From: a virus
Length of the DNA: 26,959 nt
Virus record (IMG/VR): IMGVR_UViG_3300036830_000045
Location: 1-26,959 of that record
Strand: one strand, 5' to 3'
Position 1 is the first letter of the stretch, and each line of letters begins with the position of its first letter. The position numbers were made by a program, and so were the translations under genes. A model generated the notes under the pieces. That model had not been told where the DNA came from. It did no database searches and saw only the letters and a program-made list of their open reading frames with translations. Below are positions 1 to 24,114 of this stretch, one piece after another.

Positions 1-38
1 AACATGGCCGTAATGGGCATAACCAGGTGAAGGAAGTC

Positions 39-962
39 ATGAGACGCATACTGCTGGTCCTGGTAACGGCCGCGACCCTGCTCGTCGTCATTACGGGGAC
101 GGCCGCGCACGCGAGCACCCGTCACGCACGGGTCGCGATCGGATCCAACGTTCGCATCTACCCGGCGTTCCAGGCGAAGATCCCCGCCGCCCGCGCCGTC
201 CGCATCTACTACGACTCCACCGACCCGGCTGACTGGCCGGCGGCGTGCCCGGTCCTGCCGGGGCGGCCGTGGATGCTGATCAGCTTCCGGCCGATGCCGG
301 GGCCGCTGCTGGCCGGCGACTATGACACCTGGTTCCGGCAGTGGTTCGCGACGTGCCCGCATCACACGGACGTGACGATCTGGCATGAGAACGCGGTCGG
401 TAATAACCCGCTCGGGTACGTGCATATCTTGCGTGACCCGGCCCGCTACCGGCGGATGCAGCTCCACATGCTGAAGCTGGCCAGGGGGACGCATGTCAGG
501 TTCGGGACGCTTGGCTGCGGCCCGGTCAATCAGGCGGCGAAGTGGTATGCGCCGGGCCTGGACTGGTACGGCTACGACCTGTACCTGAACGACAAGTACC
601 TGTCCGGCGGCGGGCTCCGCAAGGCAGCCATCCTGCCGGGTGCGACGTCAGGCGGGACACTGGACCGGGCCAAAGTGTGGGCTCGGATGTCGGCGAACCT
701 GGACGCGTTCCGGCGGATCAGCGGCGAACGGTATCCGCGGATTGACCTGGGCGAGTCGAACGCGAGCCCGGACAGTTACCGGCAGGCGTGGTTCACCGAT
801 GTCGTGTCGTGGTTCGATGCGCATGACGGCCGCAGGCCGGGCCGGGTGCTGACGTTCTGGCGGGACGGGAAGTCCGCGAAGGACGGTGGCTTGTCGGGTC
901 CGTGGCCGCCGAAGGCTTCAGTTGAGCGGCTGTTGCAGCGGCTTGCTGCCAGCCACCGGTGA
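39..962 (+). CDS. Secreted glycoside-hydrolase-like protein
   Basis: This 307-residue protein starts with a signal peptide (residues 1-25, cleavage likely after AHA), so it should be exported. The rest reads as a TIM-barrel glycosidase resembling clan-A families such as GH26. WHEN at residues 115-118 supplies a candidate acid/base Glu117, LGES near 237-240 a candidate nucleophile Glu239, and TFWRD near 272-276 fits the last barrel strand. It probably acts on a polysaccharide outside the cell, substrate unknown. I chose the ATG at 39 because it begins directly with the Arg-Arg-hydrophobic signal sequence and has AGGTG and AAGGA upstream; a GTG at 27 would add four residues. It is the first gene of the plus-strand accessory block and there is about 60 bp before the next. 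The family assignment is inferred from motifs only. Confidence 0.6.
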   Translation: MRRILLVLVTAATLLVVITGTAAHASTRHARVAIGSNVRIYPAFQAKIPAARAVRIYYDSTDPADWPAACPVLPGRPWMLISFRPMPGPLLAGDYDTWFRQWFATCPHHTDVTIWHENAVGNNPLGYVHILRDPARYRRMQLHMLKLARGTHVRFGTLGCGPVNQAAKWYAPGLDWYGYDLYLNDKYLSGGGLRKAAILPGATSGGTLDRAKVWARMSANLDAFRRISGERYPRIDLGESNASPDSYRQAWFTDVVSWFDAHDGRRPGRVLTFWRDGKSAKDGGLSGPWPPKASVERLLQRLAASHR

Positions 963-967
963 CACGT

Positions 968-998
968 ATTTACACGTAAGCAACGTGCTCATTAATGT
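968..998 (+). promoter_or_regulatory. Candidate promoter for the Ltp-type gene
   Basis: The 59-bp gap before the Ltp-type gene is AT-rich compared with its surroundings. TTTACA at 969-974 resembles a -35 box (one mismatch to TTGACA), and TAATGT at 993-998 fits the loose actinobacterial -10 pattern TAnnnT with an 18-nt spacer. A short leader and a GAGGAAGAG ribosome-binding site then precede the ATG at 1022. This would start transcription of the small-gene block separately from the glycosidase-like gene. It is a pattern match only. Confidence 0.4.
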
Positions 999-1021
999 AG
1001 AGAACTCGAGGAAGAGAAGCA

Positions 1022-1543
1022 ATGAACCCCTACAGCCCTTCCGGCACCGCCCCGATGATGCCGCCACCCGTGCCGCCGCAAATGCCGCGGCCGAAGAAAC
1101 GGCATCCGATCCGTACCGCGATGCTCGGCATCGGCAGCATCGTCTTCGTCGCCGTGGTCGCCATCTCCGTCCTCGGCTCGGGTACCGTCACGTTCCCGCC
1201 GGCGCAACCCAAGTCCGTCGCGCCACCAGTCCCGTCCGGCCCGGTGTACACGGTGCCGCAGCAACAGGCGATCGCATCAGCGAAGGACTACCTGCAGACT
1301 GAGCCGGGCTGGTCGAAGCTTGGCCTCGCAGGACAACTCCGATACGAGAAGTTCAGCAGCAAGCTCGCTTTGTTCGCCGTCAACCACGTGCACGCCAACT
1401 GGATGCAGCAAGCCGTCTACTCGGCGCAGAGTTACATGAAGTCTGAGCCAGGATGGTCGTTCAGCGGGCTGGTCGGCCAGCTTGAGTATGAGAAGTACAC
1501 CCCGGCTCAGGCAGCGCACGGCGCCCACGCGGTGGGCCTGTGA
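1022..1543 (+). CDS. Ltp-family membrane protein, putative superinfection exclusion
   Basis: The protein has 173 residues: a Pro-rich cytoplasmic N-terminus ending in a basic patch (PRPKKRH), one transmembrane helix at about 33-53, a Pro/Ser linker, and two tandem copies of a roughly 43-residue helical repeat (81-123 and 129-172). Both repeats share the pattern A-x-x-Y-(L/M)-x-(T/S)-EPGWS...GQL-x-YEK. This is the host cell surface-exposed lipoprotein (Ltp) repeat. In Streptococcus phage TP-J34 the Ltp lipoprotein blocks DNA entry of superinfecting phages. Here a membrane helix replaces the lipobox, a form common in actinobacteria. The start has GAGGAAGAG upstream, and the stop overlaps the next gene. 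A role in exclusion is inferred from the family; the repeat assignment is fairly sure. Confidence 0.75.
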   Translation: MNPYSPSGTAPMMPPPVPPQMPRPKKRHPIRTAMLGIGSIVFVAVVAISVLGSGTVTFPPAQPKSVAPPVPSGPVYTVPQQQAIASAKDYLQTEPGWSKLGLAGQLRYEKFSSKLALFAVNHVHANWMQQAVYSAQSYMKSEPGWSFSGLVGQLEYEKYTPAQAAHGAHAVGL

Positions 1544-1701
1544 ACGTCAGCGTGAGCACCGACACGAAGTCGAACGACCGGGTTATCCAGGCGAGCACGT
1601 TCAGCGTCGACGATCAGGGCTGCCTGCGCCTCATGGACAAGGACGGGCTGCTGACGGCCGTGTTCGCGCCGGGCCAGTGGGTGTCGGCGGTGAGCCAGTG
1701 A
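1540..1701 (+). CDS. Small hypothetical protein
   Basis: This 53-residue reading frame starts at a GTG whose GTGA overlaps the stop of the Ltp-type gene, which suggests translational coupling. The protein is mildly acidic and reads as a small beta-rich domain (FSVDDQGCLRLMDKDGLL, then VFAPGQWVSAV). It has no signal peptide or membrane segment. I do not recognise a family. The overlap, G/C-ending codons and the next gene starting 36 bp later support it as real. Confidence 0.6.
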   Translation: MNVSVSTDTKSNDRVIQASTFSVDDQGCLRLMDKDGLLTAVFAPGQWVSAVSQ

Positions 1702-14253: not shown

Positions 14254-14565
14254 TTACAGCAGCGGTGGTTCTACCTCCCACTCGTCGTCGCCGATCGCCT
14301 GCACATCACCGGTGCCTGTCCATTGCGTCAGGTCAAGCCGGTTATCGGGACCAGCCCATCCGGTGGTGTCGAAATTGACGTGATACTCCCCGGCGGCGTC
14401 CCTGACTACTTCCTCGTCGGTGCCGTAGGTGAATGTCTGCGCGGCCGCGCCGCCGAGTTTGTATTTGACGACGACGGCGGTGGGGTCGGTTGCGGTGCCG
14501 GCGTCGTCCTGGAACAGCGCCGAGCTGATGACGAGGGTTCCTGACTTGTAGACGGTCCTGCTCAT
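14254..14565 (-). CDS. Small head-proximal structural protein
   Basis: The 103-residue protein starts at an ATG overlapping the stop of the repeat protein (ATGA). It is a compact beta domain: TVYKSGTLVISSALFQDD, then PTAVVVKYKLGG, EYHVNFDTTGWAGPDNRL and WEVEPPLL. It has no signal or membrane segment. The pattern is Ig-like, and small proteins of this kind are common beside actinophage capsid genes. It probably forms a capsid or neck accessory. No specific family is recognised. Confidence 0.55.
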   Translation of the reverse strand: MSRTVYKSGTLVISSALFQDDAGTATDPTAVVVKYKLGGAAAQTFTYGTDEEVVRDAAGEYHVNFDTTGWAGPDNRLDLTQWTGTGDVQAIGDDEWEVEPPLL

Positions 14566-16712
14566 GGCGAATTCCCTATCGTGACGGCACCGGCGGCGGT
14601 ACTGGCAATCGTGACGGAACCAGATGACGTGTTGCTGACGGCCGCTGTTCCGGCTGGCGCGCTGGACACTGTCGCCCGGCCAGACGGGGCGCTGGTGACG
14701 GCCGCAGCGGAGGAAGCGCGGTTGCTGACGGCGACGCTGCCCGGCGTTCCTGTCAGACCTGTGGTGACGTCAGCGGCCGCCGTGATGGTCGCGGCCGTGC
14801 TGACAGCGGCCGCGACGGACGCGGCGGCGGCCGCGGCGGCTGTGATGGCTGCCTGGCTCGCCACGGCGGACGCGGCGAGCCTGCTGCCGGTCCCGGCGGC
14901 CGTTATGGTGGCCACGCTGGCGACGGCTGCTGCTGCCTGTTCAGCGGCCGTCATCGTGGCAGTGATGGTCGCCGTTGCTGAGCGGGCTGCGGCCGCTAGT
15001 TCAGCAGCGGTCATTGCCGCGGTGATCGTGGCGGTGCTCGAGGCGGCGACGTCAGCGGCTATCTGCCCGGTGGTGATCGTCGCTGACGCCGTAATGGTGG
15101 CTGCCGTCGACACGGCAGCCGCACCAGACTCAGCGGCCGTCATCGCCGGCGTGATCGTCGCAGTGCTGGCGACCGCAGCCGCAGCGGGCTGCCCGTAAGT
15201 GCCTGCTGCGGTAATGGTCGCTGTCGTGTTCCGGGCGGCCGCAGCCGACTCCGCCGCGGTCATGGTGGCGGTGATGGTGGCGGTGTTGCTACGCGACGCA
15301 GCGGCTTGTTCAGCGGCCGTCATCGCCGGCGTGATCGTCGCAGTCGTCGACCTCGATGCCGCCGCCAGCCGGCTACCAGTCGCCGCCGCCGTAATCGTGG
15401 CCGTGCTCGAGGCGGCGACATCGGCGGTCACTGATGCGCCGCTGGAAACCGCCTGGATCTCCCACGCGATCAGCGCCGCGTCATCAGCGACGGAGAACCC
15501 GACAGCCGTAGTCCCGCCGGGCGCATAGCCGTCTTCAGCGGCACCGTTACCGGCGCCAGTGCTGTTGTTGACGTTGACCAGGAACACCTGCGTCAGCAGC
15601 GCAGCCTCGCCGCTGCTGCCGGTCCCGATCGCGCCCGCGACCCTGTTACCGGCCGTGGTGGTCAGGTTCGTCGTGATCGGCGTTGTCGGCGACGTGGTGG
15701 ATGTGCTCGCCGGGGTGCCGGTCTGCAGGGTGAACCCGGACGCCGGGGCATACGACCAGGCACCGCCGATCAGCGAACCAGGGGTGCCGCCACCCGTGAT
15801 CGAAATCGACACCGACTTCGCGGCACCCGTCGTCGGGTTGTCGAGTTCGAACACCTGGACGTAGCCGTTGGTGACCGAGTCGGCATGGACCTGACCGGCG
15901 CCGATGTCGGACATGGACACGGTGTCATAAGTGACAGTGACTGTCTGGTTGATGTCGTTCGTCAGGCCCATGACGACCGCGACATAGAGCTTCGTCGCAG
16001 CCGCGCCGCACGTGTGGTTGAACGCCAGGTTCCGGTTACTGGTGACACTCGACGACGCTGATGCGTCGAACAGGACGTTAACCGGGTCGGACTGCTCGAG
16101 GATGCTCGCCGGGGCGAGCAGGAACGCCGCGTTCGTTGACGTGCTGGCTTCGGTGGTGCCGTCATAGAAAAACTGGCAGGCACGGGCGATGCCGTTGCCC
16201 TGCGTGGTGGCGTCACGCCAGATTTCGCAGACCAGGATGTCACCGGCGGCCGTGGTGACCGACCCGCCGCTGATCGTGGCATCTGACACCGCGGCTTCGG
16301 ACGTGCCGGGTTCGCCGGTGCTGGCTGCGGTGGTGTCGAAGATACGGGAACCGACCAGCGCCCCCGTCGACGGCCGCCACACATATACGCAGGCGGTGAA
16401 ATGCAGGTTCGCGTTCGCGTTCGCTTCGATGCCGGCCATCGACAGCTGCCAGTTACCGGCAGCGATCGTCTGAGCGGCCAGCGGCCCGGATTCGAACATC
16501 CGCAGCATCGTCGGCTGCGCTGACGTGTTCGCCAGCGTGCTCCACGACGCGGACGTCTGGCTGCTGCCCGCAGTGCCGTCCATCGACCGCTGCGTGTTCT
16601 TGCCCGTAGGCGTCGACGACTGGGCGTCAGTGGTCGCGGACTGCTTGCCGGACGGCAGTGTTCCGGTGTTGCCGGTGGCTGCGTCGTGCAGGTAAAGCTT
16701 CTGGATTGCCAC
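14562..16712 (-). CDS. Ala/Thr-rich repeat protein of the virion
   Basis: The protein has 716 residues and starts at a GTG with GGAGG six bases before. Residues 1-200 and 210-425 look like two globular beta domains (WQLSMAGIEANANANLHFTA; LYVAVVMGLTNDINQTVTVT). Residues 437-659 are about eleven units of 20 residues with consensus (T/A)ATITAxMTAAExAAAARS, one unit being longer. Residues 658-716 are six units of 10 residues (GSVTIASTAA style). Both repeats suggest a beta-solenoid or fibrous rod. Lying between the capsid and neck genes, it is probably a head fibre or decoration exposed on the particle. Confidence 0.65.
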   Translation of the reverse strand: MAIQKLYLHDAATGNTGTLPSGKQSATTDAQSSTPTGKNTQRSMDGTAGSSQTSASWSTLANTSAQPTMLRMFESGPLAAQTIAAGNWQLSMAGIEANANANLHFTACVYVWRPSTGALVGSRIFDTTAASTGEPGTSEAAVSDATISGGSVTTAAGDILVCEIWRDATTQGNGIARACQFFYDGTTEASTSTNAAFLLAPASILEQSDPVNVLFDASASSSVTSNRNLAFNHTCGAAATKLYVAVVMGLTNDINQTVTVTYDTVSMSDIGAGQVHADSVTNGYVQVFELDNPTTGAAKSVSISITGGGTPGSLIGGAWSYAPASGFTLQTGTPASTSTTSPTTPITTNLTTTAGNRVAGAIGTGSSGEAALLTQVFLVNVNNSTGAGNGAAEDGYAPGGTTAVGFSVADDAALIAWEIQAVSSGASVTADVAASSTATITAAATGSRLAAASRSTTATITPAMTAAEQAAASRSNTATITATMTAAESAAAARNTTATITAAGTYGQPAAAAVASTATITPAMTAAESGAAAVSTAATITASATITTGQIAADVAASSTATITAAMTAAELAAAARSATATITATMTAAEQAAAAVASVATITAAGTGSRLAASAVASQAAITAAAAAAASVAAAVSTAATITAAADVTTGLTGTPGSVAVSNRASSAAAVTSAPSGRATVSSAPAGTAAVSNTSSGSVTIASTAAGAVTIGNSP
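14565..14741 (-). repeat. Decapeptide-coding tandem repeat, about 6 x 30 bp
   Basis: The last 59 codons of the repeat protein read as six units of 10 residues, mostly starting with Gly and containing a (V/A)(T/A)(V/I)S core: GSVAVSNRAS, SAAAVTSAPS, GRATVSSAPA, GTAAVSNTSS, GSVTIASTAA, GAVTIGNSP. The period is exact except for the truncated last unit. Confidence 0.75.
14736..15404 (-). repeat. Icosapeptide-coding tandem repeat, about 11 x 60 bp
   Basis: Eleven units of 60 bp (one of 69-72 bp) encode the (T/A)ATITAxMTAAE... repeat of residues 437-659. Some units are almost identical at DNA level; for example the stretches near 15131 and 15311 share about 33 consecutive bases, indicating recent duplication. 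The repeats keep the opposite strand open in frame as well, producing long false reading frames there. Confidence 0.85.
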
Positions 16713-18309: not shown

Positions 18310-19650
18310 TTAGCTCTCGGTGACGCCGACGAACGGTGACAGCGAGTCGCCATGCACGGGGGTCAGCGCGGACTGGATCCACGGACGGCCGTCGACACGC
18401 TCGATCAGCCGCAGCTCGGTTTCGTCGTTCATGAACCGGGAGTGCTCGCTGTAGTCCAGCGAGATCGCCTGACGGTCACCCACCAGGTAGTAGGACAGGT
18501 CAGCGAACACGATGTCGTTGCCGGCGCCGTTGTTGTTGGCTGGCAGCTTCTCCGTGACAACCATCGGACGGCCGAAGATCGTGGTGACCGGGTTGTCCTG
18601 GATGTTGGTGACACCCAGCGGGTAGCCGCCGGTGCCGGTGGACAGGGCGAAAATCTTCGGCACGACCGTCTGGTTGACCAGCCACACAGCCGAACCCAGG
18701 GACTCTGGGAGCATCCTGGCGTACATGCCGGCGAGGTCGTCGATGGTGACGGCGGCGTCGCCGGAACGGTCGAACTGGACCAGCGCGGCCGCGTTCAGCA
18801 AACCGAGGGGCTGACCGACGCCGCCGCCGGCGATGAACGCCAGGTCCTCATAGAACGCGAGACCGCGGGGCGCATTGGCTTCGAGCCACGTCCTGAGCGC
18901 CGAAGCGTCAGCGAACAGCTCGTTCGGGACACGGGCACCGCCGACGAGCTTGTTGGCCTCGAGCTTGACGTTCCCGAACTTCGCGTTCGTCGGCGTGATC
19001 GACGCGGACTCGCCGATCCAGTAGAAGATCATGCCGCCGAACAGGGAACCGCTGTGCGTCGTCTCGTCGACGACCGGGATCCGGGTCGTAAGCGAGTTCA
19101 TGGTGATGACGGTGGCGCGTGACCGTACCACGGACCGCTCGAGCGCCAGCGACATGATGCTGGTCCGCATCTCCTCCGGCACCAGGAACCCGCCGGAGCC
19201 GGGGTCGGTCTCGCTGTAGTTGTTCGACAGCTCGGTGACCTTCTGCCACGCCTCCGGGTTCCCGATCTTCGCACCCGTCTTGTTTGCCCGGTACACGTCC
19301 AGGGCAAAGTCGCCGAGCGATGAATAGGTGCCGTCCAGCGGCGCACCCGGTGCGGCCCGGTTGTACATGGCGTTGCGGACAGCGGAGAACTGCGGCGAAC
19401 CTGGCGTCAGCGTGACCGGCGGCCCGCCCTTCGCCAGCCCGTTGCCCTTGAGCATGTCGGCGAGACCGATCTGAACCTGCTCATTCAGCTGCGCCTTCAG
19501 GTCCGGGTCAAACCCGAACACCTTCCGCGCATAGGTCATCAGGAACTCATCGCGAGTGTCCTTGTTAGCGAAGATCGGCGCTGCCTTCTTCGGGTCATTG
19601 ACAAGTTCCTGCAGCTCCGTGGAGGTCTGCGGGATTACGGGTGTGCTCAT
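18310..19650 (-). CDS. Major capsid protein, HK97 fold
   Basis: The 446-residue protein follows the ClpP-type protease gene with an ATGA overlap and AGGAGG before the start. Residues 1-120 form a helical N-terminal region, probably the scaffold/delta domain cut off at maturation. The HK97-like body begins near YSETDPGSGGFLVPEEMRTS at about 145-165. It continues with LALERSVVRSRATVI, TRIPVVDE, WIGESASITPTNAKFG and NELFADAS, and ends with FGRPMVVTEKLPA, DLSYYLVGDRQAISLDYSE and ERVDGRPW. These are the standard motifs of Phage_capsid (PF05065). Confidence 0.93.
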   Translation of the reverse strand: MSTPVIPQTSTELQELVNDPKKAAPIFANKDTRDEFLMTYARKVFGFDPDLKAQLNEQVQIGLADMLKGNGLAKGGPPVTLTPGSPQFSAVRNAMYNRAAPGAPLDGTYSSLGDFALDVYRANKTGAKIGNPEAWQKVTELSNNYSETDPGSGGFLVPEEMRTSIMSLALERSVVRSRATVITMNSLTTRIPVVDETTHSGSLFGGMIFYWIGESASITPTNAKFGNVKLEANKLVGGARVPNELFADASALRTWLEANAPRGLAFYEDLAFIAGGGVGQPLGLLNAAALVQFDRSGDAAVTIDDLAGMYARMLPESLGSAVWLVNQTVVPKIFALSTGTGGYPLGVTNIQDNPVTTIFGRPMVVTEKLPANNNGAGNDIVFADLSYYLVGDRQAISLDYSEHSRFMNDETELRLIERVDGRPWIQSALTPVHGDSLSPFVGVTES

Positions 19651-20579
19651 GCCTTGGCCTCCTCGAGAGCCATCAGGAACTCGCGGCTCCAGCTGTTGCC
19701 GGTGCCGTCATTCATGGAACCGTCCGAACCCCAGCTGTCAGGGATCCGGGACGACAGCCCTAGAGCGGCTGCCCGCTTGATGATGTGCTTGCGGATCGCG
19801 TCATGCGACCCGCCGCCGCGGCCAACCGCGTGGATCGCGTTGTCCAGATCCTCGGCGTCCGCGATCGGATACGAACCGTCCGGCATTGCCTGCCCGTTCG
19901 ACGCCATCCGCTTCCGGTCGTCGGCGTTGTACTTGGCGTTGTCGACCTTGCGGGGGCCGTTGTAGATGGACAGGTCCCACGCGGCCCGCGGCTCAGCACC
20001 CTGGATGCCGTCAGCCAGACGGACGTCGACGGCTTCCTTCGCCGTGTACCACGTCTCCTGCCGCATCGCGTCCCGCCAGTATTCGACGTCGCGGTTCGTG
20101 CGCTCGGCGTAGATGGACGCGATGTTGTCGCTGGCCTTGTCGACAAGATCGGCGGCCTGACGCAGATCGGCGGCGTTCCCGATCGCGGCCGTGAACCCGT
20201 CGTGGATCATCATCGTGGAGTTCTTCGCCATCAGCAGCCTGCCGGGGCTGGCTGCCATGGCGATGAACGACGCCGCCGACGCCGCCAGGCTGTCGACGAT
20301 GATGGATACCTGGCCGCGGTTCTTCAGGTAGTTGTAGATCGCGATCCCGTCGAACACGTCCCCGCCGGGCGAATTGATATGAACCTCAAGTTCGCCGGTC
20401 ACCGGGGACAGGTCACCGATCAGGTCCGATGCGGTGACACCGAAGTAGCCGATCTCGTTGTAGATCATGAGCTGCGCCGGTGCGTGCTCGGATTTGTCCA
20501 TGATCTTGTACCAGTCGACCTGCCCTTGCCGCAGGTTCGACATGGGCCGGGCGGTGCGCCACGGCTTCTTGTCCGCCAT
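19647..20579 (-). CDS. ClpP-type prohead protease
   Basis: The protein has 310 residues, starting at ATG after GGGAGGACGTGA. Residues about 35-195 form an S14 (ClpP-like) serine protease: INSPGGDVFDG at 68-78 for the oxyanion loop, LAASAASFIAMA around catalytic Ser101, and MMIHDG with His126. The C-terminal part (about 220-310) resembles a DUF6582-like tail (NGQAMPDGSYPIADAEDLDN, then HAVGRGGGSHDAIRKHI), often found in actinophage proteases or capsid-linked proteins. It should cleave the capsid delta domain and scaffold. It overlaps the capsid start and abuts the portal stop. Confidence 0.9.
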   Translation of the reverse strand: MADKKPWRTARPMSNLRQGQVDWYKIMDKSEHAPAQLMIYNEIGYFGVTASDLIGDLSPVTGELEVHINSPGGDVFDGIAIYNYLKNRGQVSIIVDSLAASAASFIAMAASPGRLLMAKNSTMMIHDGFTAAIGNAADLRQAADLVDKASDNIASIYAERTNRDVEYWRDAMRQETWYTAKEAVDVRLADGIQGAEPRAAWDLSIYNGPRKVDNAKYNADDRKRMASNGQAMPDGSYPIADAEDLDNAIHAVGRGGGSHDAIRKHIIKRAAALGLSSRIPDSWGSDGSMNDGTGNSWSREFLMALEEAKA

Positions 20580-21989
20580 TCACGTCCTCCCGGTTGCTAC
20601 CGGCACGTGACCGTTAGCCATCACGCGCCTGAGTCGTTCATGCATGTCGTCTTCGCCGGGCGCGATCCCGGCCATCGCCATCAGCGCCGCCTCGCTCTGC
20701 GTCGCCGGGGCAGGTTCGGGAGCGGCCGCAGGCGGCGGCGCCTCCACGGTGTTCATGTCCGGCAGGCCGACCACCTTCAGGACGTCATGAGGGTCGAACA
20801 CGCCTGGCGTGATCAGCAGGTTCGCGGCCGTCGCTTTCGCCGTCAGCTCGGCGTTGTCCTGCTCGCGGTTCATCGGCGCCTGCAACGCGTAATCGAACTC
20901 GACGTCCTGGCCGGTGACGCCGAACAGCGGCAGGAACTGGTTGTTCAGCACATCGCGCCAGCGGTCCAGCCGCGGCTCGATCTTCCACGACGTGAACACT
21001 TCCTCACCCGTCTGGGCGTTGGCGCGGTTCACGTCATCAGTGACACCCGTCATGACTTTGTGCATGCCGAGTGCTTCGCGGATCTCGTCCCGCATCTCCA
21101 GGCTGAGGTTCGCGAAGTCCATGTCCTTCGGGCTGGTGCCGGTCGGCACCCATTTCGCGCCCGCCTCGAGCACAGCGATGCGATGCGACCGGGAGACGCC
21201 GCGGTGCGCTTCGGCCCACTGGATTTCCATCCGGTCGAAGTCGACGTCCTCCACCGACGGGTCCAGTTCGATGACACCGTCAGGGCGGGCCGAGTTCTCG
21301 AAGAACGACGCATTCCATGCGGTGGCGTACCGGGCGGCGGCGATGTTCGTCATCACCGACCCGATCGGACCCGCACCGCCGTACACGTCCTCAGGGTCCG
21401 GGTAGCAGTTGTAGATGACGTCCTGCACCCGCAGCGGGATCCGCTCACTGCCGTCAGGTGACGTGTAGATCCAGCCGGCCAGGAACGTCTCCGGATGCGG
21501 GACAGGCTGCATCCGCCACGGCGGCACCGGCCACAGGCCCATCGGGAACGGCGCCCGCCCGTACTCCACCACCCAGTGCGCCTTACCGGTCGTCTCCAGC
21601 CAGATCCCCGAAATCTCGAACAGCCGCTTACGGGTGAACACCACATACGTGGCGCCGCCGGATGTGATCGTGGCGGGCTGATTCAGGACGTTCAGGGCCT
21701 GATGCCGCACCACCTGCGTCCGCTGATCACTGCCCGTCTCAGACGTGGAGTAGCGGACGCGGCCGTCGGTGGCTTGCTTGCGGTACAGCGACCACTCAGG
21801 TTTCGCCGCCGAGCTCGCCAGGAGCGCCACATTCGAATGGACGGTGCCCTGCGACTTGAACGCCCGCACCGCCGCCTGATCCGAAGACGCCGAATGGCTC
21901 AGCAACGCAGCCGCGCCATACGGACGGGACGGCGCAAGCGGCACAGGGGACTGGTTACGGACGGCGAGGGCTTTGCCGATCAGGCTCAT
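20580..21989 (-). CDS. Portal protein, HK97 type
   Basis: The 469-residue protein matches the Phage_portal family (PF04860). It has an N-terminal helical region (NVALLASSAAKPEWSLYRK), WVVEYGRAPFPMGLWPVPPW, DVIYNCYPDPEDVYGGAGPI, FFENSARPDGVIELDPS, the stem region (MEIQWAEAHRGVSRSHRIAV, VPTGTSPKDMDF, EMRDEIREALGMHKVMTGV) and FTSWKIEPRLDRW near the C-terminus. The last 60 residues are Pro/Ala-rich. It forms the dodecameric DNA channel at one capsid vertex. The start overlaps the small membrane gene (ATGA), and the stop abuts the protease start. Confidence 0.93.
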   Translation of the reverse strand: MSLIGKALAVRNQSPVPLAPSRPYGAAALLSHSASSDQAAVRAFKSQGTVHSNVALLASSAAKPEWSLYRKQATDGRVRYSTSETGSDQRTQVVRHQALNVLNQPATITSGGATYVVFTRKRLFEISGIWLETTGKAHWVVEYGRAPFPMGLWPVPPWRMQPVPHPETFLAGWIYTSPDGSERIPLRVQDVIYNCYPDPEDVYGGAGPIGSVMTNIAAARYATAWNASFFENSARPDGVIELDPSVEDVDFDRMEIQWAEAHRGVSRSHRIAVLEAGAKWVPTGTSPKDMDFANLSLEMRDEIREALGMHKVMTGVTDDVNRANAQTGEEVFTSWKIEPRLDRWRDVLNNQFLPLFGVTGQDVEFDYALQAPMNREQDNAELTAKATAANLLITPGVFDPHDVLKVVGLPDMNTVEAPPPAAAPEPAPATQSEAALMAMAGIAPGEDDMHERLRRVMANGHVPVATGRT

Positions 21990-22346: not shown

Positions 22347-22379
22347 CATGACGACAGTTAGATGTCGCAGGTGCCAGCG

Positions 22380-22694
22380 ATGACACTCCGGGACGCAGGC
22401 GAATTGCTGCGCACCAGAGTCGACCAGACCATCGAAGCGCTCGAACTGGACGACAAGGACGCCGCGGCCGTGAAGCTGGCACGCGAATACGCCGACCTGA
22501 TCGACCGTGCCTGCATCGACGGCGACAAAGCTGACCGCGGCTGGGCGTTGCGGTGGATCGGCCCCCTGCTGCTCGACACATTGACGGAACTCGGCGCGAC
22601 ACCTGGTGCTAGGGCACGCGTCAAGAAGACAGGACCCGCGCCAGCCGGGCCTGCAGGCAACCTGGCGAAAATCCGTGCCGCCCGCCAGGCGTAA
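22380..22694 (+). CDS. Small terminase subunit
   Basis: This 104-residue helical protein has the actinophage TerS pattern: MTLRDAGELLRTRVDQTI, AVKLAREYADLIDRA, RWIGPLLLDTLTELGATPGA, and a basic Ala/Gly/Pro-rich tail ending KIRAARQA. It recognises the packaging site and loads DNA onto the large subunit. I chose ATG 22380 because AGGTG stands six bases upstream; an in-frame ATG at 22362 has none. The large subunit starts inside its last codons. The plus orientation is opposite to the portal. Confidence 0.75.
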   Translation: MTLRDAGELLRTRVDQTIEALELDDKDAAAVKLAREYADLIDRACIDGDKADRGWALRWIGPLLLDTLTELGATPGARARVKKTGPAPAGPAGNLAKIRAARQA

Positions 22695-24114
22695 ACCCGC
22701 GCTCAAGGGATACACCAAGCCGCTGCACTACACGAAGCCGCTGCGGCCGCTCACCCGCAAGACGACCCGCGGGTTCGAGATCATCGACTTCGCCCGCGAC
22801 GTGGTCGGTGAACCGCTGCTGCCGTGGCAGGAGTTCGTCGTCAAATCAGCGTTCGAACTCCTCCCCAGCGGCCGCTACAGGTTCCGCACCGTCCTCATCG
22901 TCGTCGCCCGCCAGAACGGCAAATCACACCTCCTCCGCATCATCACCTTGTGGCGGGCATACGTGGACGGTGCCCGGCAGATCCTCGGCACCGCCCACCG
23001 CGTCGGCCTCGCCCGCAAGCAGTGGACACTCGTCCAGCGCGCCATCAAAACCGTCCCCGAACTCGCGTCGGAGTGGGAAGGCGTCCGCAACGTCAACGGC
23101 GACGAGAAGTGCTGGTTCGCTGGCTGCGAATACGAGATCATGGCCGGCGGCGACGCAGGCCGCGGTGCCTCCAACGACCTCGTTGTCATCGACGAACTGC
23201 GGGTCCAGTCGAACTGGAAAACGTGGGCGGCCGTCAGCAAGACAACCAGCGCACGCCGCAACGGCCAGACATGGGCCATGTCCAACGCAGGCGACGACTA
23301 CAGCATCGTCCTCAACCAGCTCCAGGAAGTCGGCCGCAACGGCACCGACCCCAGCCTGTGCCTCCTCGAATGGTCCGCACCGGACGGCTGCGAACTCGAC
23401 GACCCCGCCGCGATCTGCCAGGCCAACCCGAGCATCGGCTACGACGTCGGACTCAGCCAGGAAGCCATCTGGTCAGCGCTCGGCACCGACCCGCCAGCCA
23501 TCTACCGCACCGAAGTCTTGTGCCAGCGCGTCCCCAACCTCGACGCAGCCATCGACCTCGGCGCCTGGCGGGACTGCGCCGACGACGCCGGCAACCTCAC
23601 CGCGCTCAAAGGCCGCATCGCGCTCTGCTTCGATGCCGCCGAAGACGGCCAGCACGCAACATTGGCTGCGGCCGCCCAGACCGACGACGGGCGCGTCAGA
23701 GTCGAAATCGTCAAAGCATGGAAATCCACCGAAGACGCACGCAGCGACCTCGACGGACTGTTCGACACCATCAAAGCCCGCGCTATCGGCTGGTACCCCT
23801 CCGGACCCGGCGCAGCCCTCGGCCCCGTCATCCGCAAACGCGGCAAGCAACTCGAAATCGGCGGCACCAAAGCCGGCGAAGCCTGCCAGAACCTGGCCGA
23901 CCTCGTCCGCGGCCGCCAGATCATCCACCCCGCCGACCCGCTCCTGGACGCACACATCGCCGCCGCCACCAAACTCCACACGGGCGATGGCTGGCGGTTC
24001 GTACGCAAAGACGCCGGACACGTTGACGCCGCCTACGCGGCCGCAGGCGCCATCTACGCAGCGCAGACACTCCCCGCACCCCGGCGGCCCCAGATCCGCA
24101 TACTCGGCGCGTAA
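22675..24114 (+). CDS. Large terminase subunit
   Basis: The 479-residue protein starts at a GTG inside the small subunit's 3' end; it has no obvious binding site, so coupling is likely. The ATPase part has VVARQNGKSHLL (Walker A at about 78-84), DLVVIDEL (Walker B at 168-174) and MSNAGDD (coupling motif at about 202-208). The nuclease part has CFDAAEDGQH (Asp320), WYPSGPGAALGPVI and HVDAAYAAAGA (Asp451). It belongs to the Terminase_1 (PF03354) type. It pumps and cuts concatemeric DNA. The codons are strongly C-ending, which creates long false frames on both strands. Confidence 0.93.
   Translation: MPPARRKPALKGYTKPLHYTKPLRPLTRKTTRGFEIIDFARDVVGEPLLPWQEFVVKSAFELLPSGRYRFRTVLIVVARQNGKSHLLRIITLWRAYVDGARQILGTAHRVGLARKQWTLVQRAIKTVPELASEWEGVRNVNGDEKCWFAGCEYEIMAGGDAGRGASNDLVVIDELRVQSNWKTWAAVSKTTSARRNGQTWAMSNAGDDYSIVLNQLQEVGRNGTDPSLCLLEWSAPDGCELDDPAAICQANPSIGYDVGLSQEAIWSALGTDPPAIYRTEVLCQRVPNLDAAIDLGAWRDCADDAGNLTALKGRIALCFDAAEDGQHATLAAAAQTDDGRVRVEIVKAWKSTEDARSDLDGLFDTIKARAIGWYPSGPGAALGPVIRKRGKQLEIGGTKAGEACQNLADLVRGRQIIHPADPLLDAHIAAATKLHTGDGWRFVRKDAGHVDAAYAAAGAIYAAQTLPAPRRPQIRILGA

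What the first reader, a model, noticed from the sequence alone, without database searches (positions are those of the whole stretch)
1022..1543. Ltp-type superinfection exclusion candidate with a membrane anchor
Two tandem Ltp repeats sit behind a single transmembrane helix rather than a lipobox, with a likely promoter of its own on the strand opposite the virion genes. The family (TP-J34 Ltp) blocks injection of competing phage DNA, often targeting the tape measure protein. If expressed in lysogeny, this would be an immunity function.
Basis: partly seen in the sequence, partly recalled or inferred. Interest (0 to 1): 0.6.

Follow-up and report, generated by a model that had tools for sequence, protein, structure and literature searches.

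The report
Membrane-tethered Ltp-type phage-exclusion protein candidate
A fragment of an actinobacterial phage genome carries a gene for a small protein tethered outside the cell membrane whose outer part folds like Ltp, a known blocker of competing phages; it is a credible but largely ordinary member of a widespread family, unusual mainly in lacking the acidic surface that the known blocker is thought to use.

Summary
ORF 1022-1543 (+, 173 aa) carries two PF07553 repeats above the curated cut-off. They follow one transmembrane helix (residues 33-51) with no lipobox. The modelled outer domain matches TP-J34 Ltp (4eqq: TM-score 0.83-0.87, 1.5-1.8 A). The gene runs opposite to portal, capsid and tail genes, but the terminase shares its strand. 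A promoter-like site lies in the AT-rich gap before the gene; it is suggestive only.

Superinfection exclusion is the best reading. However, the membrane anchor is no oddity: by a crude rule, most relatives I fetched use a helix rather than a lipobox. Lysogeny is unproven: this 27-kb fragment has no integrase or recombinase and no recognised repressor. In 27 of 48 related viral records an integrase or recombinase lies within 2.5 kb of the Ltp gene; in the window's own clade only 1 of 8 records has one at all. A distant structural relative does carry an integrase.

The real difference is charge. The Ltp domain is neutral to basic (pI 8.2), whereas acidic pI is listed as a family trait and the proposed tape-measure binding is electrostatic. 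A different target or contact is therefore likely. Modest interest.

The parts
1022..1543 (+). ltp-like gene, 173 aa: inside N-tail, one transmembrane helix, linker, two Ltp repeats
   Evidence: PF07553 E 3.2e-14, over cut-off; phrog_4980 E 7.8e-21; codon-position GC and RBS
1022..1117 (+). N-terminal tail, residues 1-32, proline-rich and ending in KKRHPIR; presumed cytoplasmic by the positive-inside rule
   Evidence: sequence; topology is inference
1118..1174 (+). single transmembrane helix, residues 33-51 (signal anchor); no cysteine, so no lipobox
   Evidence: hydropathy 2.62 over 19 residues
1175..1252 (+). extracytoplasmic Pro/Val-rich linker, residues 52-77
   Evidence: sequence; low-to-moderate pLDDT in the model
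1259..1390 (+). Ltp repeat 1 (PF07553)
   Evidence: 29.9 bits, over cut-off; helices 78-93, 99-108, 113-122 in the model
1397..1522 (+). Ltp repeat 2 (PF07553)
   Evidence: 28.2 bits, over cut-off; helices 127-141, 147-156, 161-170 in the model
969..998 (+). promoter-like site TTTACA-N18-TAATGT in an AT-rich gap (not proven)
   Evidence: only such match in the window by a loose actinobacterial rule; not found by the strict sigma-70 scan
973..987 (+). short inverted repeat CACGT-N5-ACGTG inside the promoter-like spacer; possible operator, speculative
   Evidence: the only perfect copy; near-matches are not above chance
1009..1014 (+). ribosome-binding site AGGAAG
   Evidence: sequence
1540..1701 (+). 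53-aa ORF of unknown function overlapping the ltp stop by 4 nt; probably translationally coupled
   Evidence: weak hits to unknown PHROG families
27..962 (+). upstream secreted 311-aa protein without known relatives, 59 nt before ltp; may or may not share its transcript
   Evidence: no relatives

Best explanation
The gene encodes a phage superinfection-exclusion protein built on the Ltp fold. A short positively charged tail stays inside the cell, one helix anchors the protein in the membrane, and a flexible linker presents two tandem three-helix Ltp repeats in the wall space. There it would bind part of an incoming siphophage's tail-tip or ejection machinery and stop DNA entry, protecting the cell and the resident phage. 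Shown: the two-repeat fold, the helix anchor without lipobox, and a phage genome. Inferred: outside orientation, exclusion activity, and action at DNA entry. Because the domain is neutral to basic, I think its target or contact surface differs from the acidic-Ltp to basic-tape-measure contact proposed for TP-J34. Timing (prophage state, early lytic phase, or both) is open.
For: PF07553 twice above the curated cut-off. PHROG 'superinfection exclusion'. AlphaFold model pLDDT 97-99 over residues 80-173; best PDB match is TP-J34 Ltp 4eqq, TM-score 0.83-0.87 on the target, 1.5-1.8 A, then a large drop to RecX-type helices. 106 isolate phage records hold relatives, annotated lipoprotein or superinfection exclusion. 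In related viral records an integrase/recombinase lies within 2.5 kb of ltp in 27 of 48, the place of ltp in TP-J34 (PMC3952083). The TM-anchored relatives L092 and L134 follow a tyrosine integrase on the same strand. A lipid anchor is not needed for activity: TP-J34 Ltp expressed without it inhibits further phages (PMC3952083).
Against: No test of function here. Domain pI 8.2, net +1; median pI of 68 relatives 4.6. Cellular members of the same clade (Actinoplanes, Nocardioides) are short secreted proteins in regions with no obvious phage genes, so the fold has other uses. No integrase, serine recombinase or recognised repressor in the 27 kb.
Confidence: 0.62

Rival explanations
1. It works exactly as TP-J34 Ltp: the repeats bind the C-terminal part of the incoming phage's tape measure protein by charge and stall ejection, expressed from a prophage promoter as lysogenic immunity.
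For: Same fold; promoter-like site of its own; a distant structural relative, contig C315 of G096, carries a tyrosine integrase and an HTH regulator; ltp lies only 1 kb from the contig end, so an integrase could be just off it.
Against: Acidic residues conserved in the family are lost here: columns 104, 107, 115, 121, 126, 140, 152 are 62-79% acidic in relatives but G, R, L, N, N, K, G here. pI 8.2 against 5.1 for the TP-J34 stretch. Lysogeny genes are not seen in the window.
Confidence: 0.25
2. Lytic-cycle exclusion: the phage is virulent or pseudolysogenic and makes the protein early in infection to keep later arrivals out.
For: Among viral records of the window's clade only 1 of 8 has an integrase/recombinase against 34 of 40 others (Fisher p 1.6e-4), including records of 48, 56 and 112 kb without one. 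Gordonia phages carry ltp between terminase and portal on the virion strand, and the 59-kb relative G010 has no detected integrase. Ltp was reported in an apparently obligately lytic Gordonia phage (PMC4524720). The Ltp-like gp41 of C. acnes phages is expressed in infection (PMC11480721).
Against: Several clade records are short fragments; sequences are related, so the p value is optimistic; the grouping was made after seeing the tree; C315, a relative by structural genes, has an integrase.
Confidence: 0.35
3. Not an exclusion protein: a cell-envelope protein of actinobacteria picked up by the phage, with a wall or surface role.
For: Basic relatives in Actinoplanes and Nocardioides are chromosomal secreted proteins with no obvious phage genes nearby. 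PF07553 also occurs in pneumococcal CbpL, a wall-bound protein that is not a lipoprotein (PMC5137146). Over 400 relatives were found in cellular genome contigs.
Against: Phage-borne copies recur beside integrases; the only function shown for the fold is exclusion; the cellular copies may themselves be antiphage.
Confidence: 0.15

Closest known systems
TP-J34 Ltp (Streptococcus thermophilus phage; PDB 4EQQ; PMC3952083)
   Same: Two tandem helix-turn-helix-type repeats, membrane-tethered outside the cytoplasm, phage-borne; modelled fold matches at TM-score 0.83-0.87.
   Different: Helix anchor instead of lipid; neutral-to-basic rather than acidic; 24-25% identity in the structural alignment; one extra residue (PGW) in the same loop of both repeats; no integrase seen beside it.
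Vividuovirus (Gordonia) Ltp, e.g. Brandonk123 gp12
   Same: Actinophage, two repeats, no lipobox, 41% identity over residues 56-173.
   Different: Strongly acidic (pI 4.05); encoded between terminase and portal on the virion strand; different tree position.
Ltp-like proteins of viral contigs L092 and L134 (IMG/VR)
   Same: Near-identical layout: proline-rich tail, KKKRH/KKRH, one helix, linker, two repeats; L092 is in the same clade.
   Different: Directly downstream of a tyrosine integrase on the same strand; domain net charge -4 (L092) and -5 (L134); no match to the window's capsid.
Cutibacterium acnes phage gp41 (Aquarius; PMC11480721)
   Same: Proposed Ltp-like exclusion protein of an actinophage with a helix anchor; expressed in infection and pseudolysogeny.
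   Different: Predicted mostly beta, cystatin-like fold, so not clearly the Ltp fold; negative patch on the surface.
Basic secreted Ltp proteins of Actinoplanes and Nocardioides (L026, L071)
   Same: Same clade and basic charge.
   Different: Short, with signal-peptide-like N-termini, chromosomal and with no obvious phage genes nearby; function unknown.

Membership tests
Pfam PF07553 (Lipoprotein_Ltp domain family) | Profile match above the curated cut-off | tested here: met
   53.2 bits against 23.2; both repeats over the cut-off on their own
[quoted passage not shown]
   Six helices, two three-helix repeats, fold match to 4eqq
Ltp superinfection-exclusion family as defined in PMC5137146 | Membrane-anchoring N-terminal region | tested here: met
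   Transmembrane helix, residues 33-51
Ltp superinfection-exclusion family as defined in PMC5137146 | Lipobox cysteine (stated there for all reported members except CbpL) | tested here: not met
   No cysteine in the protein. My survey finds lipoboxes in only about a third of relatives, so this feature does not define the family in practice
Ltp superinfection-exclusion family as defined in PMC5137146 | Acidic pI | tested here: not met
   Domain pI 8.2, outer part 8.9; 10 of 68 relatives also have domain pI of 8 or more
TP-J34 Ltp mechanism | Binds the tape measure protein and blocks DNA injection | not testable with these tools
   Needs expression, binding and infection tests
Prophage-expressed exclusion gene (lysogeny module) | Next to integrase/repressor and transcribed in the lysogen | tested here: inconclusive
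   No integrase or recombinase in the 26,959-base fragment, but ltp is 1 kb from its left end

The most novel reading that the evidence does not exclude
Soil actinophages, many apparently without an integrase, carry a distinct clade of helix-anchored or secreted Ltp proteins that has lost the acidic face. These exclude rivals during lytic growth by gripping something other than the basic tape measure tail, and their nearest cellular kin are secreted chromosomal proteins of actinobacteria that may be antiphage defences.
Probability: 0.2. Interest if true: 0.5.

Novelty: new variant of a known kind. Interest (0 to 1): 0.3.

Why it matters
If it excludes phages, the case would show that Ltp-fold exclusion works without a lipid anchor and without the acidic face in actinobacteria, a group with many phages and few characterised exclusion proteins. 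It also makes testable whether charge decides which phages an Ltp blocks. The wider point is corrective: the published description 'acidic lipoprotein' fits only part of PF07553.

Tried and rejected
Strict sigma-70 promoter scan: nothing near ltp. CACGT-N5-ACGTG as a repeated operator: other copies only at chance level. NCBIfam and PADLOC: no meaningful hit (the BrxA hit, like the Cmr3 hit, is noise). PDB by sequence alone: only a sub-threshold hit to 4eqq; the fold search settled it. Upstream gene 27-962: no relatives in Pfam, PHROGs, phages, PDB or IMG/VR and one weak partial hit in 396 actinobacterial genomes; its single-sequence model is too poor to use (pLDDT 42.7), so no fold search was run. 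Capsid search in the clade's viral records: none, so the window's relatives by ltp are not shown to be relatives by virion. Two searches failed on handle limits, two on handle type and one alignment on frame. No positive control was available for the transmembrane/lipobox classifier; at least five 'TM' calls look like missed lipoboxes (L018, L025, L041, L085, L094) and some are probably cleavable signal peptides.

Full report
Observation. The window is a whole IMG/VR virus record of 26,959 bases, 65.7% GC, probably a fragment. ORF 1022-1543 (+) encodes 173 aa. Codon-position GC (0.63/0.50/0.83) and an AGGAAG ribosome-binding site 7 nt upstream support a real gene. PF07553 matches at E 3.2e-14, 53.2 bits against a cut-off of 23.2. 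Both repeats pass on their own at 1259-1390 and 1397-1522. PHROG 4980, annotated superinfection exclusion, matches at E 7.8e-21. Residues 33-51 form one strongly hydrophobic stretch after KKRHPIR, and there is no cysteine anywhere, so no lipobox. Inside tail and outside repeats follow from the positive-inside rule; that is inference.

Fold. An AlphaFold model on 69 aligned sequences gives pLDDT of about 97-99 over residues 80-173, with six helices in two repeats; the tail, helix and linker are less certain, overall pTM 0.60. The two best PDB matches are the two chains of TP-J34 Ltp (4eqq), E about 4e-4, TM-score 0.83 and 0.87 by target length, rmsd 1.5 and 1.8 A, 24-25% identity. The next hits have E above 1. 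Identity of the fold is therefore settled; function is not.

Anchor. In 143 distinct relatives from cellular and viral contigs, a crude rule helix-type against 28 lipobox in cellular loci and 36 against 19 in viral loci. At least five of the helix calls look like missed lipoboxes and some like cleavable signal peptides, but many have the same internal helix after a polar tail (for example L092 and L134). The Gordonia phage protein also lacks a lipobox. TP-J34 Ltp without its lipid anchor inhibits further phages (PMC3952083), so a lipid is not needed for activity.

Strand and promoter. Portal, protease, capsid, tail and lysis genes are on the minus strand; both terminase genes are on plus. The plus-strand block from 27 to about 3,321 converges on the tail end of the minus block. 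The gap 963-1021 is AT-rich (42% GC over 963-1010, lowest 0.15% of such stretches) and holds TTTACA-N18-TAATGT at 969-998, the only match in the window on either strand to 5-of-6 TTGACA, 16-19 nt, TANNNT. About one match per strand is expected by chance, the strict scan finds nothing, and I chose the loose rule after seeing the site, so the promoter is plausible, not established.

Genomic setting of relatives. Of 48 viral records with an Ltp relative, 35 carry a tyrosine integrase or serine recombinase and in 27 it lies within 2.5 kb of the Ltp gene. This agrees with ltp lying next to int in the lysogeny module of TP-J34 and being transcribed in the prophage (PMC3952083). L092 and L134 have the same protein layout as the window and lie just downstream of a tyrosine integrase on the same strand. 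The window has no integrase or recombinase, but ltp is only 1 kb from its left end, so absence means little.

Tree. The window row is a long branch (0.89) within a starred set of 16 (support 96/92): L087, L089, L092, L093, L095, L104, L105, L118 from viral contigs, and Actinoplanes-type, Nocardioides and Solirubrobacter cellular rows. Placement within the set is unsure (94 columns, 70 rows). Only 1 of these 8 viral records has an integrase or recombinase against 34 of 40 others (Fisher p 1.6e-4). This is exploratory: several are fragments, rows are related, and the grouping was made after seeing the tree. In L095, L105 and L118, Ltp is on the strand opposite to, and converging on, minus-strand genes that include a holin (L118) and a peptidoglycan-binding protein (L095), as in the window. 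None of eleven records tested has a detectable relative of the window's capsid, so ltp appears to have moved between phage lineages.

Phage lineage. The portal is 39% identical to Streptomyces phage Dagobah, which is predicted temperate (PMC7650747) but has no annotated integrase, and about 71% to a short contig, L156. Contig C315 of actinobacterial genome G096 (44,790 bases) shares portal, protease, capsid, terminase and several head-tail proteins at 33-61% identity; the capsid match wraps round its ends, so it is a circularly permuted phage genome. It has a tyrosine integrase and an HTH regulator but no Ltp. The lineage thus includes at least one probable temperate phage, without ltp.

Charge. 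One paper's description of the family lists two helix-turn-helix repeats, acidic pI and an anchoring N-terminus as traits (PMC5137146), and the tape-measure contact is described as negative Ltp residues meeting positive tape-measure peptides (PMC11480721, citing Bebeacua 2013). The window domain has pI 8.2, net +1; the printed TP-J34 stretch 5.1; the Gordonia protein 4.05; median of 68 relatives 4.6; 10 of 68 are at 8 or above. Positions acidic in 62-79% of relatives are G, R, L, N, N, K, G here. The loss is partly shared by the clade, so it is not an accident of this one sequence. I take this as the one feature that separates the protein from the prototype.

Conclusion. It is a PF07553 protein with the Ltp fold, helix-anchored. 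It fails two traits of the published Ltp lipoprotein definition (lipobox, acidic pI), so I file it as a variant, not as a TP-J34-type lipoprotein. That it works like Ltp, blocking DNA entry from outside the membrane, remains the best explanation at about 0.6. Lysogenic expression and tape-measure binding are each weaker claims. Interest is modest.

Noticed in passing
window 22362-24114 (+) against 18310-21989 (-); L156; G096 contig C315 (L165-L167): The terminase genes run opposite to portal, protease and capsid, as in L156; in C315 terminase and portal together run opposite to protease and capsid. The packaging block seems to flip between relatives.
   Followed up: partly
window 27-962 (+): Secreted 311-aa protein with no relatives in phages, Pfam, PHROGs, PDB or IMG/VR. 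Its WHE and LGES motifs recall family-26 glycoside hydrolases from memory only.
   Followed up: partly
G096 contig C315, 44,790 bases: Circularly permuted phage genome binned in an actinobacterial assembly: structural genes related to the window, tyrosine integrase, HTH regulator, C5 DNA methylase and a portal frame with one TGA.
   Followed up: partly
L026, L019, L056, L059, L071, L006: Short basic secreted Ltp proteins on actinobacterial chromosomes in regions with no obvious phage genes; function unknown.
   Followed up: partly
L003 7485-8276 (+) and 15253-15975 (-): Two different-looking Ltp proteins on one contig, one with a lipobox and one helix-anchored.
   Followed up: no
window 14562-16712 (-): 716-aa protein with many degenerate repeats around ATITA and a weak minor-tail match.
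   Followed up: no
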